Shown in pieces: positions 376 to 50,430 of a stretch of DNA of 50,430 bases. Source of the stretch: Opitutales bacterium (lineage in GTDB: Bacteria; Verrucomicrobiota; Verrucomicrobiia; Opitutales; UBA953); contig JAGBIL010000015.1 in NCBI GenBank assembly GCA_017935025.1, positions 1-50,430 on the forward strand. The letters run 5' to 3'. Every line of letters starts with the position of its first letter. The first letter of the stretch is position 1. The notes beneath the pieces are model-generated. The model did no database searches. It worked only from the letters and a program-made list of their open reading frames with translations, and had not been told where the DNA came from. A program made the translations under genes and the position numbers.

Positions 376-1221
376 ATGAACAAAACAACACACTACGGAA
401 CACAAGAACCGGTCATCGAAAGCCTTTCGCTGACAACATCCACCGCCGACACGCCGACGGGGACATTGGTTTACACGGTGCAGGGAACGTGGAACGATGT
501 CAGAAACAACACTCCCGAGTTAGGAACGCGCAGCGAGTTTTTCCAAAACGTAGAATGGAAAGACGCCGCCGGAAAAGATCACCGGGCAGACCTGATGCTG
601 AAAAGCATTTCGAGGGCGTCCACGGGATCCGGAACGGCATTTAAAATAACACTCACCTACGGCGCGCCGGATTTAATCGAGGAAAACGAGAACGAGCAGG
701 AACCGAGCTACACGATGACGGCAGAAAGCGGAACGGCAAGCATCCTCCTTCATCCCCGCTACAAAGACCTTTCCGAAAACGAAAAAATCATCGCAAAAGC
801 ATTACTCGAAGGCAAGACGCGCAAAGATTTGGTAAACCCGAGCTGGGCAGAAAACGGAACCGTAACACTCACGGCGGCGCAAGCCGGCACAGGCGTCCCC
901 CTTGCCGTGATAATAAGTAAAGTAATCGCCAAGAACTCACGAGCCGACGAGTTGATTAAAAAAATCGAAAACGGCGTGAATGAATACAAAACCTTCGGCG
1001 TCACTTGGAAGGAAACCACATTCAAGAGCGGAGTAAGCAGCGCACTCTCCGCGCTGGCGACCGTCAACCCGCCGCCGGGCCCGAACCCCAACGTTCCCGA
1101 CCGAAACTGGCTTTACACGGGAGCGGAGGCAACTAAGGAGAAAGGCGCCGCAAAATGGAAAGTCACGCGGACGTGGCGCCTTTCGGACTCGGGCGCGAAA
1201 TGGGACGCGGATTTATACTAA
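376..1221 (+). CDS. Hypothetical phage-type structural protein, 281 aa
   Basis: I do not recognise a named family. The protein is soluble, without signal peptide or membrane segment, Thr- and Glu-rich, with a beta-strand-like N-terminal half (alternating polar and hydrophobic residues, LTTSTADTPTGTLVYTV) and a more helical middle (residues about 130-215). It ends in an aromatic-rich tail with WKVTRTWRLSDSGAKW, the kind of sequence seen in small phage structural or adaptor proteins. It starts at the first ATG after a T-rich leader with no Shine-Dalgarno. Its stop overlaps the stop of the convergent DUF6150-like gene by 4 bases. Function is unknown; a virion or tail role is inferred only from position beside other element genes. 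Confidence 0.7.
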   Translation: MNKTTHYGTQEPVIESLSLTTSTADTPTGTLVYTVQGTWNDVRNNTPELGTRSEFFQNVEWKDAAGKDHRADLMLKSISRASTGSGTAFKITLTYGAPDLIEENENEQEPSYTMTAESGTASILLHPRYKDLSENEKIIAKALLEGKTRKDLVNPSWAENGTVTLTAAQAGTGVPLAVIISKVIAKNSRADELIKKIENGVNEYKTFGVTWKETTFKSGVSSALSALATVNPPPGPNPNVPDRNWLYTGAEATKEKGAAKWKVTRTWRLSDSGAKWDADLY

Positions 1222-1556
1222 TTAGCCGGTCCTTCAAAACCATCCTCAACAATTCGGATTCTCAAATCTTCAACAGGAGTATCAACAATACGCACGCGAA
1301 AATCACCGTCAAATTGCACAATCTTCCATTGTCCCGGTTTTTTCGCGTCCCCCAAAACATACCGCACCTTCAAATCCTCAAATCCGTGGGTAACAAATCG
1401 GACTTTGTAATCCTCCATGGCGTTAACGAATTGAATCCGCCCGTAGAGACCGCGTGCGAGCGCCTTACGCCTTGCGGAATCGCTCGCTCCGGTAACGGCA
1501 AAAGCGGCAACGGAAACAAACGCGAAAGCAACGACAAGCAATTTTTTCAAACCCAT
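1218..1556 (-). CDS. Secreted DUF6150 / 7(1) septoil knot-type protein
   Basis: The 112-residue product has an N-terminal signal peptide (MGLKKLLVVAFAFVSVAAFA, cleavage near residue 20). The rest is built from short repeats of the form D-[YFL]-K/R-V-R-x-V: DYKVRFV, DLKVRYV, DFRVRIV, DLRIRIV, with PGQWKIV between the second and third. That pattern is how I remember the DUF6150 family, renamed for the 7(1) septoil knot fold, in which tandem beta hairpins are threaded into a deep knot. The family's function is not known. The gene is on the opposite strand to the flanking phage-like genes, so it may be a separately expressed cargo gene whose product is exported to the periplasm. Family assignment is from the repeat pattern only. 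Confidence 0.65.
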   Translation of the reverse strand: MGLKKLLVVAFAFVSVAAFAVTGASDSARRKALARGLYGRIQFVNAMEDYKVRFVTHGFEDLKVRYVLGDAKKPGQWKIVQFDGDFRVRIVDTPVEDLRIRIVEDGFEGPAN

Positions 1557-1570
1557 AACCGTTTTTCTAA

Positions 1571-2146
1571 ATGAACCTCCCTACGATTCCAAACAATTTT
1601 TCAAGCGGCGAAGTATTGAGCGCCGCAAGGCTGAATCAACTCTTAGACTGGATGCGGCGAGCAAACGAAATTCTCCGCGAAGCCTCAAAGCAAAACAACT
1701 CCGTCACGGAAACACGGCGCGTCCCCGCGGGAACGGACTACACACCCCCGCATCCGTTTTACGCACGGGTGATTTACAACGACGCGGAACCGACGGGCGT
1801 CGCCGTTTCCGGAGGCGGCGTTTACGTGAGCGTTATCCCGCACATCACCTGCGCCGATAACGGCGGGAGCGGATACACGGCTTCGTCTTACGTAGAATCT
1901 TTTTATCAGGAACCCGAAACCATCGACGGGAACCCGGCAGGGAAAAAACTTTATTGGAAATACGACAGAGAAACGGACTCTATGACGTTCGAGTTGACGG
2001 AAGAAGAGCCGGATACAGACTACACAAACCCGCTTCTACCCATTCGCGTAAAAATCGCAGAGTTTGAAGAGGCAGACGGCATCACACTCGTGAGCCAATT
2101 TTTACGCAGCGACATTTTTGTAACGCGCACGGATTTCAGCTGTTAG
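1571..2146 (+). CDS. Hypothetical phage-type protein, 191 aa
   Basis: This 191-residue soluble protein matches no family I can name. The N-terminus (MNLPTIPNNFSSGEVLSAARLN, then QLLDWMRRANEILRE) resembles the N-terminal helix of phage tail-fibre or baseplate accessory proteins, in which a PxxFxxGxxLxAxxLNxLxxxV pattern precedes beta-rich domains. After that come a glycine-rich segment and an acidic C-terminal half (TEEEPDTDYT). The start is ATG after a T-rich sequence, 14 bases beyond the start of the divergent DUF6150-like gene. The next gene follows after 11 bases and has a good ribosome site, so the two are probably co-transcribed. Confidence 0.65.
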   Translation: MNLPTIPNNFSSGEVLSAARLNQLLDWMRRANEILREASKQNNSVTETRRVPAGTDYTPPHPFYARVIYNDAEPTGVAVSGGGVYVSVIPHITCADNGGSGYTASSYVESFYQEPETIDGNPAGKKLYWKYDRETDSMTFELTEEEPDTDYTNPLLPIRVKIAEFEEADGITLVSQFLRSDIFVTRTDFSC

Positions 2147-2150
2147 GAGA
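2145..2150 (+). promoter_or_regulatory. Shine-Dalgarno AGGAGA for the GT29-like gene
   Basis: AGGAGA overlaps the stop codon of the preceding gene and lies 7 bases before the ATG at 2158. It is notable because almost no chromosomal gene in this window has a recognisable Shine-Dalgarno. Confidence 0.7.
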
Positions 2151-2157
2151 ACAAGCG

Positions 2158-2694
2158 ATGACGGCGGAGGAAATTTTTCGGGAAACGTTTCGCGGGCGGA
2201 GCGTCGCGGTGGTCGGCAATGCCAACCCGAAGGCGGATTTTTCGGAATCCGTCGACGCCGCCGACATCGTCGTAAGACTCAACCATTGCCCGAATTTGGA
2301 AAGCGGAAAAACCGGCAAGCGGATAGACGTTATCATCCAAGTACCGACAACGGCGTGGTTCAGACTTCCCGAAAGCGAGCAACACCGGGAACAAATCCGC
2401 ATGGCACGGCCGCGGGTATTCCTTTTGCACAACGCCGGATTGGCGCATGTGAGTCCTCTACGCGAACTTCTGGCGGGACTGGACGTGCACGCAGTCTCCC
2501 CGCCGCCGCAAACACAAGGCTGGTCGACGGGCGGCAAGGCGTTAAAAATGATTGTCGCCGCAGAACCGGCAAGCCTTAACGGATATTGTTTTTCGGATAC
2601 AGAGCAGGAATTTGAAGCATATTTACGCACAGAAGGGCGGCATCATTTACCGACGGCCATGGAGGAATTTCGCTCACGGAGGGCTCTGCAATGA
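2158..2694 (+). CDS. GT29 sialyltransferase-like glycosyltransferase, compact
   Basis: The 178-residue protein carries the sialylmotifs of CAZy family GT29 in order: an L-motif-like segment (VAVVGNANP...DAADIVVRLNHC, residues about 15-44), an S-motif-like GWSTGGKALKM near residues 120-131, and a C-terminal VS-like H...E element (HHLPTAMEE). GT29 enzymes transfer sialic acid from CMP-sialate to glycans. The length is short for the family, so acceptor loops are probably reduced. The gene overlaps the CMP-sialate synthetase-like gene by 4 bases (ATGA), a strong sign of a shared pathway. It lies in a mobile element, where it could modify host surface glycans or phage particles; that role is inference. 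Kdo-like or other nonulosonic sugars are possible substrates. Confidence 0.7.
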   Translation: MTAEEIFRETFRGRSVAVVGNANPKADFSESVDAADIVVRLNHCPNLESGKTGKRIDVIIQVPTTAWFRLPESEQHREQIRMARPRVFLLHNAGLAHVSPLRELLAGLDVHAVSPPPQTQGWSTGGKALKMIVAAEPASLNGYCFSDTEQEFEAYLRTEGRHHLPTAMEEFRSRRALQ

Positions 2695-48783: not shown

Positions 48784-49104
48784 TTTATTCTGTGGTACGT
48801 TGTTAAAACAAATTTAAATGTTTTCAAAAAGGGAATCCTCTTACGCCGTGAAACACAAGCCGGAATTTTTCACAAAAAGCGTTCCCGCCGCAAAAAATTG
48901 TCTCTTTTTTTGAAAAATTACGGTTTTCGGAACAACAAGTACGTCAGTCGTTGCCCCATAACGCATTAAAAAGAAAACCTCACTCCACTCAGGAATGGAA
49001 ACAAACCGCTCCAGATAATCGCAGATTGGAAAATCGTATCGAAAAATAATTATTTTATAAGAGCTGGGATTGCTGAAAATCTGCAAACTATGATGCAACC
49101 ACTG
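48784..49104. other. Gap of about 320 bases, no gene found
   Basis: The left third holds the barrel protein's leader, the last CGGGAACG octamer (48880-48887) and a T-rich stretch. From about 48900 the composition turns AT-rich, which suggests the junction of the foreign HsdS segment. An 85-codon frame on the minus strand shows no protein-like features and I do not call it. Confidence 0.6.
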
Positions 49105-49611
49105 CTATGCAGTTCTATTGTTGATTGTTGATAGATATTTTAATATTTGGATACTTTCAATGTCTCTCATATATTGCTCCATAAACTCCCAGTCGGGCTG
49201 CCCTGTGGTGGTAACAGGCAAAGATAAAACTTCCTTTGCTAATCTTGTTGCGCTTCTCTTATACCCAAAATTATATTTACCACGTATTCTGTCAGCAATG
49301 GTTGTTATAAACATTCCTGTATATTTGTTTATATGCTCGCTATATGCCAATGTCATATCAGATGTTGCAATGAAATCCTCGGCTTTATATACAGAGTATC
49401 CCATCGACCCCTCTCCATTACGAATAAATGCGATGCAGTTTCCCTTTTGGACTAGATTATCAACGGCTTTAACAAAGCATAATACCCCGTTGTTTAAGTT
49501 TGTTGCTCCCAAGTAACTTATACCAGAATCGTCCTTCTCCAAATGGTTAAGCCCTTTTGATTTGCCAACTTCCATTCTTGGGAATAAATCTCTGATATAG
49601 AACTCATTCCA
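49105..49611 (-). CDS. HsdS-type specificity module C (third, 3'-most)
   Basis: This is a target-recognition module of a type I restriction-modification specificity subunit. In frame from the poly-G tract the protein runs WNEFYIRDLFPRMEVGKSKG and then GISYLGATNLNNGVLCFV, FIATSDMTLAYSEHI, TTIADRIRGKYNFGYKRS, and the conserved helix start LPVTTTGQPDWEFMEQYM. These match modules A and B in order. The first ATG is at 49575, but module homology starts in phase with the poly-G tract, so the true product is likely a fusion made when that tract has 11 or 14 G. The module ends at 49105 without a poly-G tract. It is clearly more AT-rich than the rest of the window. Confidence 0.8.
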   Translation of the reverse strand, partial: WNEFYIRDLFPRMEVGKSKGLNHLEKDDSGISYLGATNLNNGVLCFVKAVDNLVQKGNCIAFIRNGEGSMGYSVYKAEDFIATSDMTLAYSEHINKYTGMFITTIADRIRGKYNFGYKRSATRLAKEVLSLPVTTTGQPDWEFMEQYMRDIESIQILKYLSTINNRTA

Positions 49612-50206
49612 AATTACCCCCCCCCCCCAATTTATTGATAGTCAATTGATTATCTTTTAATCTATTTTTGAAAGTTGCAAGAGTTGTGCCGAGTATGTCT
49701 GTTTCAATCTGTTTCATAAATGAAGACATAAATTGAAAGTCAATATCGCCTGCATCTGTAACAGGAAGCAACAATTTTTCTCTCTTTATTCTTTCATCGT
49801 TTATTTCTCTGTTAAAACTATATTTCTCCGATAAACGATTGATTAGGGGAATCATAAACAGATACGCATATTTATCTAATCCCTCTCTCTTTAATTGCGT
49901 TACGTGGTCGCTAGCAATAAATTCATATCTATGATAGAACGCACTGCCAACACTACCGCTATTAGCCAAAGTTAAACAATCTTCAAACCGCCTTACGCTG
50001 CTATCATTGCCGATAAAGCCATCAACTCCATTGTTGAATGATGTTGATGATACGTAGGGAGTATTTCCAACTTTGTGGTCTGCCTTTTTAAGACGCTTAC
50101 CACGCTGAATTTCAGTGAATACCTCTGTAAAATAGAATGCTTTCCAATTAGAGTGAAGCGATTTACCCCCCCCCCCATTAACTCGTTGGCAATCAATTGT
50201 TTGCAT
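49604..50206 (-). CDS. HsdS-type specificity module B (middle)
   Basis: Full module between two poly-G tracts. After NGGGGKSLHSNWKAFYFTEV it reads IQRGKRLKKADHKVGN, TPYVSSTSFNNGVDGF, FIASDHVTQLKREGLDKYAY, LFMIPLINRLSEKYSFNRE and LLPVTDAGDIDFQFMSSFMK, then a helix KNRLKDNQLTINKLGGGG and a stop three residues after tract 2. The W..FY..EVF start and the DFQF(M/I)SSFM helix match modules A and C. The listed ATG (50206) lies inside the upstream module in another frame; the natural 5' end is probably fusion to module A when tract 1 has 9 or 12 G. In the present register it may be translated only by re-initiation. Confidence 0.8.
   Translation of the reverse strand: MQTIDCQRVNGGGGKSLHSNWKAFYFTEVFTEIQRGKRLKKADHKVGNTPYVSSTSFNNGVDGFIGNDSSVRRFEDCLTLANSGSVGSAFYHRYEFIASDHVTQLKREGLDKYAYLFMIPLINRLSEKYSFNREINDERIKREKLLLPVTDAGDIDFQFMSSFMKQIETDILGTTLATFKNRLKDNQLTINKLGGGGNLE
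49617..49628 (-). repeat. Poly-G tract 2 (12 G on the coding strand) in the HsdS array
   Basis: Homopolymer of 12 C on the + strand at the end of module B. With 12 G the frame ends GGGGNLE-stop. Loss of one G (11), or gain of two (14), would continue in frame into WNEFYIRDLF of module C. Confidence 0.92.
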
Positions 50207-50430
50207 AATTTATCAATTGTAGGTTTTAAAATTCGTTGTTCAATTTGTCTCATAAATGAAGAAATAAACTGAAAATCAACATCTCCATTTGCGTCAATAG
50301 GTAAATATATTTTGTCTTTTTTGATTCTATCTAATGATGCCATATGCCCATAACTATATTTCGTTGCAGTTGTTTGAGTAATTGCTTTTGAAATAAACAG
50401 CGCAGTATAGGCATCAAGGGTAAAGTTTCT
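49993..50430 (-). CDS. HsdS-type specificity module A, C-terminal part (partial, 5' outside window)
   Basis: The frame is open to the window edge: NFTLDAYTALFISKAI, then KIYLPIDANGDVDFQFISSF, MRQIEQRILKPTIDKLCKQL and ANELMGGG at tract 1, after which it shifts into an unrelated tail of about 60 residues ending at 49993. The conserved helix DVDFQFISSFMRQIE is shared with module B (DIDFQFMSSFMKQIE) and resembles DWEFMEQYMRDIE of module C. The N-terminal part of the protein lies beyond 50430, so its type (stand-alone HsdS or fused methylase) is not visible. hsdM and hsdR genes are not in the window. Confidence 0.78.
   Translation of the reverse strand, partial: RNFTLDAYTALFISKAITQTTATKYSYGHMASLDRIKKDKIYLPIDANGDVDFQFISSFMRQIEQRILKPTIDKLCKQLIANELMGGGVNRFTLIGKHSILQRYSLKFSVVSVLKRQTTKLEILPTYHQHHSTMELMALSAMIAA
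50166..50176 (-). repeat. Poly-G tract 1 (11 G on the coding strand) in the HsdS array
   Basis: Homopolymer of 11 C on the + strand at the junction of modules A and B. With 11 G module A reads into a non-homologous tail; 9 or 12 G would join it in frame to GKSLHSNWKAFYF of module B. Confidence 0.92.

What the first reader, a model, noticed from the sequence alone, without database searches (positions are those of the whole stretch)
49105..50430. Tandem HsdS target-recognition modules separated by poly-G tracts: a slippage-driven specificity switch
Three homologous modules (A partial, B, C) follow one another. At each junction lies a poly-G run (11 and 12 G). The two reading frames on either side of each tract are offset by one base, and the homologous module start (WKAFYF / WNEFYI) is in frame only if tract 1 has 9 or 12 G and tract 2 has 11 or 14 G. 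Changing one base of tract length would therefore fuse or separate modules and could create single-, double- or triple-module specificity proteins. Phase-variable hsdS by inversion or by poly-tracts is known, but a chain of modules with tracts at each joint looks unusual.
Basis: partly seen in the sequence, partly recalled or inferred. Interest (0 to 1): 0.85.

Follow-up and report, generated by a model that had tools for sequence, protein, structure and literature searches.

The report
Slippage switch choosing DNA-recognition modules
A gut-bacterial DNA-methylation enzyme keeps three interchangeable DNA-recognition modules in a row, joined by runs of G that easily gain or lose a base, so copying slips can change which modules are joined and probably which DNA sites the cell marks.

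Summary
Three Methylase_S (PF01420) modules lie on the minus strand and run off the contig end at 50430. I call them M1 (partial), M2 and M3 in order of translation. G11 (50166-50176) and G12 (49617-49628) sit exactly at the two joints. M1-M2 fuse at 9 or 12 G and M2-M3 at 8, 11 or 14 G, so both joints are now split.

Relatives show a conserved architecture. Eleven Bacteroidales loci have the same three modules, with a G or C run of 7-12 at both joints and no other G/C run of 6 or more. Near-identical copies differ almost only in tract length. Natural states include M1-M2 fused, M2-M3 fused and all split. M3 stays under purifying selection even where out of frame. An ATG hidden in the alternative frame before tract 1, present in all 12 loci, can start M2.

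This is not a classical Type I hsdS: in relatives the partner is a BcgI-like (Type IIB) nuclease-methylase fusion. One-tract (HP1471, NgoAV) and three-module (JHP1422) versions are known; the three-module, two-tract version with a hidden start is a new variant. A change of DNA specificity is inferred. The partner gene is missing from this assembly.

The parts
50206..50418 (-). Module M1 (first in translation), 3' half only; cut by the contig end at 50430. Its reading frame continues through tract 1 into an out-of-frame tail that stops at 49993
   Evidence: Module profile match 6.1e-23, profile positions 90-159; PF01420 E 9.8e-4; open frame 49993-50430
50204..50206 (-). Hidden ATG in the alternative frame of the M1 tail, 30 nt before tract 1; starts M2 when tract 1 has 8, 11 or 14 G (its present state)
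   Evidence: Present in 12 of 12 three-module loci, always made by a Leu codon ending in A followed by TGC; Leu codons ending in A are only 8-53% elsewhere in the same modules
50166..50176 (-). Tract 1, G11, at the M1/M2 joint; fused at 9 or 12, split at 11
   Evidence: 9 G in L041, 8 in L042/L043/L046, 12 in L047
49604..50206 (-). Module M2, now a stand-alone 200-aa ORF (MQTIDCQRVNGGGGKSLHSNWKAF...KLGGGGNLE)
   Evidence: PF01420 E 2e-18; 98% identical over residues 12-196 to L041
49617..49628 (-). Tract 2, G12, at the M2/M3 joint; fused at 8, 11 or 14, split at 12
   Evidence: one-G difference at this tract between near-identical L042 and L043
49105..49611 (-). Module M3; out of frame now, no ATG/GTG/TTG start before the module begins (first in-frame ATG at 49575)
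   Evidence: Module profile 4.1e-72; PF01420 E 4.8e-8; dN/dS 0.10 against L041, where M3 is also out of frame
48918..48972 (.). Boundary between host-type sequence (homology to same-genus genome G005 ends at 48917) and the foreign stretch (homology to Bacteroidales L041 begins at 48973)
   Evidence: GC falls from about 0.5 to 0.37

Best explanation
This is the specificity (S) gene of a BcgI-like Type IIB restriction-modification system of Bacteroidales origin, carrying three recognition modules whose joining is set by slipped-strand length changes of two mononucleotide tracts. Tract 1 has three frames: (i) M1-M2 made as one two-module S protein; (ii) M1 ends in a junk tail and M2 starts from a hidden ATG; (iii) M1 stops just after the tract and M2 is silent. 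Tract 2 decides whether M3 is joined behind M2. The cell can therefore make S(M1-M2), S(M2-M3) or a lone half-S M2, each expected to direct the same nuclease-methylase fusion to a different site; a triple-module protein is possible by frame but was not observed. In the window both joints are split, so lone M2 (plus tailed M1) is predicted. Shown: architecture, tracts, frame arithmetic, conservation, tract-length differences between near-identical loci, purifying selection on the out-of-frame module. Inferred: use of the hidden ATG, assembly with the RM subunit, altered DNA specificity, and that the system acts in this host.
For: Twelve loci (window, L041-L050, L076) have three modules with a G or C run of 7-12 at both joints and no other G/C run of 6 or more in the span. 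Three loci (L048-L050) use poly-C instead of poly-G at joint 2. L042 against L043: 2 substitutions and one indel in 8.29 kb, the indel being one G of tract 2, which turns M2|M3 into M2-M3. L042 against L052: 1 substitution and one G of tract 2 in 880 nt. L046 against L047: the gaps in the module span are at the two tracts. Window against L041: the only coding gaps are at the two tracts. States: M1-M2 fused in L041 and L047; M2-M3 fused in L043, L044, L046, L049; split in six. M3 dN/dS 0.10 and 0.03 in pairs where it is out of frame in both loci. Hidden ATG in 12 of 12, its frame open in 11 of 12. Partner: fusion with invariant P52...E66-x-K68 and N6_Mtase, full-length fold match to BsaXI, 44% identity to a protein annotated BcgIA, with BcgIB next to it. 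Precedents: HP1471 tract between two TRDs (PMC4209511), NgoAV fuse/split changes the methylated site (PMC9577141), JHP1422 three TRDs and two sites (PMC3936762).
Against: No RNA, protein or methylome data. The RM partner is absent from this assembly and the contig ends inside M1. Most loci are MAGs, and homopolymer lengths in assemblies can be wrong by one. L046 has a stop in the hidden-start frame although its M2-M3 are fused. Tract variation within one population was not seen. The S model was of low confidence, so pairing of the modules was not tested structurally.
Confidence: 0.75

Rival explanations
1. Simple ON/OFF phase variation: only one fused form is active and every other state is just off; the third module is a spare, with no real change of specificity.
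For: Half of the loci are in an all-split state. In the H. pylori relative JHP1364/1365, activity was found only after the frameshift was corrected (PMC3936762).
Against: Both M1-M2 and M2-M3 fusions occur in nature. M3 is under strong purifying selection. NgoAV and JHP1422 show that lone or alternative module pairs methylate different sites.
Confidence: 0.15
2. The extra module is mainly a store for recombination (exchange of recognition modules between loci), and the tracts are homology or breakpoints for exchange rather than switches.
For: M1 has been exchanged between loci: 47-55% aa identity where M2 and M3 are more than 90% identical. The island moves between species: 8.29 kb at 99.96% identity in two genomes.
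Against: Tracts change by single bases without any flanking exchange. Poly-C replaces poly-G at joint 2 in L048-L050. The hidden start is tuned to tract frame. The two ideas are not exclusive.
Confidence: 0.1
3. In this window the locus is an assembly chimera or a binned Bacteroidales fragment, and its tract states are sequencing noise.
For: Sharp origin change between 48917 and 48973; GC 0.37; contig ends inside the gene; no RM partner in the assembly and none in 372 genomes of the host order.
Against: It is a distinct allele, not a copy of a known Bacteroidales locus (dS 0.2-0.35 against the closest). The architecture itself is confirmed in independent genomes. In relatives the island carries ORFs that look like a relaxase and an integrase, so transfer is plausible (by inspection).
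Confidence: 0.3
4. The G runs are just glycine linkers between modules and the frame differences are assembly errors.
For: In the fused frames the tracts do encode Gly-rich linkers.
Against: GGG is only 13% of Gly codons in these modules, yet the joints are uninterrupted G; some joints use poly-C, which does not encode Gly. Two-module relatives on finished plasmids and a phage have no run of 6 or more at the joint.
Confidence: 0.05

Closest known systems
HP1471/HP1472 and JHP1364/JHP1365 of Helicobacter pylori (BcgI-like Type IIB; PMC4209511, PMC3936762)
   Same: Nuclease-methylase fusion plus an S gene with a G tract directly between two recognition modules; slippage decides whether one or both modules are translated
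   Different: Two modules and one tract; here three modules, two tracts and a hidden start that gives a choice between two module pairs
NgoAV hsdS1/hsdS2 of Neisseria gonorrhoeae (PMC9577141)
   Same: A poly-G tract between two half-S parts; fusion changes the methylated site from GCAN8TGC to GCAN7STCA
   Different: Type I with hsdM and hsdR; two modules, one tract, and hsdS2 alone is not an active protein
JHP1422/JHP1423 of H. pylori J99 (PMC3936762)
   Same: Three consecutive recognition modules in one S gene, giving two methylated sites
   Different: Type I; no tracts at the joints are described in the section read; two of the modules are identical; variants arise by exchange
JHP1272 (Hpy99XIV) Type IIG (PMC3936762)
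   Same: Two homopolymer tracts, the first ON/OFF and the second changing specificity
   Different: Single-chain Type IIG enzyme, not a chain of S modules

Membership tests
BcgI-like Type IIB restriction-modification | Endonuclease and N6-adenine methylase fused in one chain | tested here: met
   In relatives only: 15 aligned partners have invariant P52, E66, K68 and an N6_Mtase domain at about 303-587; full-length fold match to BsaXI and other fused RM enzymes. The partner is absent from the window's assembly.
BcgI-like Type IIB restriction-modification | Homology to named BcgI-type subunits | tested here: met
   44% identity over 94% to a phage protein annotated bcgIA, with bcgIB next to it; that S carries two modules of this family.
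BcgI-like Type IIB restriction-modification | Separate S subunit with two recognition modules, TRD1-CR1-TRD2-CR2 | tested here: inconclusive
   M1-M2 and M2-M3 fused ORFs with two PF01420 stretches exist in relatives, but the gene holds three modules; the S model had mean pLDDT 55 and was not used.
BcgI-like Type IIB restriction-modification | Cleavage on both sides of a bipartite site | not testable with these tools
   Needs enzyme assay.
Type I HsdS | Own HsdM plus HsdR partners | tested here: not met
   The three hsdM-type methylase genes of the genome lie on other contigs (C21, C19, C26), near S matches of their own; relatives of this locus have the fusion partner directly upstream. Absence of an R gene nearby was judged from ORF lists only.
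Tract-driven phase-variable S genes (NgoAV / HP1471 kind) | Mononucleotide tract between recognition modules that changes the reading frame | tested here: met
   24 of 24 joints in 12 loci.
Tract-driven phase-variable S genes (NgoAV / HP1471 kind) | Tract length varies between otherwise near-identical copies | tested here: met
   L042/L043, L042/L052, L046/L047, window/L041.
Tract-driven phase-variable S genes (NgoAV / HP1471 kind) | Switching within a clonal population with altered methylation | not testable with these tools
   No reads or methylomes available here.

The most novel reading that the evidence does not exclude
One S gene with three modules, two slippage tracts and a concealed alternative-frame start acts as a selector: single-base changes choose M1-M2, M2-M3 or lone M2 as the specificity subunit, so a mobile Bacteroidales enzyme cycles through several methylation specificities without recombination.
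Probability: 0.5. Interest if true: 0.65.

Novelty: new variant of a known kind. Interest (0 to 1): 0.52.

Why it matters
If true, a single gut-bacterial gene can re-aim a DNA methylase between several targets by gaining or losing one G, with no recombinase. It would extend tract-driven specificity switching from pathogens such as H. pylori and gonococcus to mobile systems of gut Bacteroidales, and it can be tested directly, because two named isolates (L042, L043) carry the same island in two different tract states. It also warns that automatic annotation will call such genes broken or truncated.

Tried and rejected
Locating the other flank of the insertion: the gene that follows in relative G005 lies on contig C15 of this genome with different neighbours, so the junction could not be closed. 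Finding the partner gene in the host assembly: only the N6-methylase parts of the three Type I HsdM proteins matched weakly. Treating C21 and C4 as the missing piece: their S modules and HsdM belong to another Type I system (the modules of this locus match only C35). Viral contigs held no relative. Predicted S structure: too low in confidence (pLDDT 55), so no fold search was made. Genome-wide poly-G enrichment: G runs of 9 or more are about as frequent as a simple GC estimate predicts (my estimate), so nothing is claimed. Absence of a triple fusion in 12 loci is not significant (chance about 0.24 if frames are random).

Full report
WHAT IS THERE. The window is the whole of contig C35 and ends inside the feature. 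On the minus strand three homologous modules follow one another. I name them in order of translation: M1 (partial, 50418-50206), M2 (49670-50146 within ORF 49604-50206) and M3 (49132-49611, stop at 49105). M2 and M3 match Pfam PF01420, Methylase_S, and all three match a module profile. Two G runs lie on the coding strand, G11 at 50166-50176 and G12 at 49617-49628, exactly at the joints. In 2000 dinucleotide shuffles the longest G/C run reached 10 or more in only 4, although the tracts themselves feed the shuffles.

RELATIVES. A scan of named bacterial genomes for M2 gave 12 loci, all in Bacteroidales, the closest with 98% identity in a sheep-colon Bacteroidaceae MAG (L041). A search with the upstream partner gene found it in 11 of 399 Bacteroidaceae genomes and 4 of 393 of a sample of the order of another carrier, and in none of 372 genomes of the window's own order. 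Counting the window, 12 loci (window, L041-L050, L076) have three modules with a G or C run of 7-12 at both joints, and within the module span there is no other G/C run of 6 or more. Three of them (L048-L050) have poly-C rather than poly-G at joint 2, which argues for selection on slippage and not on a glycine linker. Two-module relatives on finished plasmids and a phage have no such run at the joint. One three-module relative, L081, is a single frame with no tract.

TRACTS CHANGE. L042 and L043, assigned to two species, share 8.29 kb that differ by two substitutions and one indel, and the indel is one G of tract 2: 9 G gives M2|M3 split, 8 G gives M2-M3 fused. L042 and a third genome, L052, differ over 880 nt by one substitution and the same G. 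L046 and L047 differ by 4 bases at each tract, with no other gap inside the module span. Window and L041 have only two gaps in the coding region, at the two tracts. Natural states seen: M1-M2 fused in L041 and L047; M2-M3 fused in L043, L044, L046 and L049; all split in the window, L042, L045, L048, L050 and L076. No triple fusion was seen, which with 12 loci is not significant.

THE SPLIT STATES ARE NOT SIMPLE DECAY. M3 has dN/dS 0.10 between the window and L041 and 0.03 between L042 and L047, pairs in which M3 is out of frame in both members. M1 by contrast has been exchanged: 47-55% identity between loci whose M2 and M3 are more than 90% identical.

A HIDDEN START. In the frame that leads into M2 when tract 1 is at 8, 11 or 14 G (7, 10 or 13 in L044 and L048) there is an ATG about 30 nt before the tract in 12 of 12 loci, made by a Leu codon ending in A followed by TGC inside the conserved (K/R)LCK motif of M1. 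Leu codons ending in A are 8-53% of Leu codons in the same modules. The frame from this ATG to the tract is open in 11 of 12 loci, L046 having a stop. This gives tract 1 three outcomes: fused M1-M2, separate M2, or no M2. Use of the ATG is inferred.

WHAT KIND OF SYSTEM. In the relatives with enough sequence upstream the gene before M1 encodes a ~640-aa protein with an N6-methylase domain at about 303-587 and an N-terminal part with invariant P52, E66 and K68, a PD-(E/D)xK pattern. Its predicted structure (mean pLDDT 80.6) matches Type I methylases best, but also BsaXI and other fused enzymes over the full length. It is 44% identical to a phage protein annotated bcgIA whose neighbour is bcgIB. 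So this is a BcgI-like Type IIB system, not Type I. The window's assembly lacks this partner.

ORIGIN IN THIS GENOME. Homology with the closest same-genus genome stops at 48917 and homology with L041 begins at 48973, with GC falling to about 0.37. The window allele differs from L041 by dS 0.2-0.35, so it is not a simple copy. In L042/L043 the shared island includes ORFs that look like a relaxase and an integrase (by inspection), so horizontal transfer is plausible. An assembly chimera cannot be excluded; I give this about 0.3. It would not affect the general finding, which rests on independent genomes. The organism of the window was not identified.

MECHANISM. The best reading: slipped-strand changes in the two tracts decide whether the cell makes S(M1-M2), S(M2-M3) or a lone half-S M2, and thereby where the methylase-nuclease acts. 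Precedents for each step, from papers read here: in H. pylori HP1471 the tract lies directly between two TRDs (PMC4209511); in NgoAV fusing two half-S genes changes the methylated site (PMC9577141); in JHP1422 three TRDs give two sites and one TRD alone methylates a palindrome (PMC3936762). SSR tracts are reported in 7.9% of Type I hsdS genes (PMC7394358). I found no paper describing three modules with a tract at each joint, but only openly licensed papers were searched.

VERDICT. Observation confirmed; interpretation largely right in mechanism, wrong in family; a new variant of a known kind, conserved in mobile Bacteroidales systems and testable in cultured strains.

Noticed in passing
L036:5943-5953 (contig C19:21942-21952): A second S gene of the same genome, a Type I hsdS with its hsdM nearby, has an 11-C tract on the coding strand exactly between its two recognition modules; at 10 or 13 C the modules fuse into a 370-codon frame.
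   Followed up: partly
L034 (contig C21, 6385 bp) and L035 end (contig C4:26781-27268): C21 ends in hsdM + RhuM-like gene + hsdS and C4 ends in a half hsdS next to an hsdR-like gene; they may be two ends of one Type I operon broken by the assembly.
   Followed up: no
L042:5153-13442 and L043:5153-13441: An 8.29-kb island with the restriction-modification genes, a relaxase-like and an integrase-like ORF is 99.96% identical in genomes named as two different species.
   Followed up: partly
L078:2761 and L080:2753 (G8), L083:2772 (G9): Two-module Bacteroidales relatives also carry a G run at the single joint: fused in L078 and L080, split in L083, i.e. the HP1471-like form.
   Followed up: partly
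L092:8096-8170 and many places in G000: A 30-50-bp repeat, found on both strands at many places of the host genome, lies next to a gene end; it looks like a REP-type element.
   Followed up: no
L081 (about 1068-2628, minus strand): A related S gene with three modules in one uninterrupted frame and no homopolymer at the joints.
   Followed up: no
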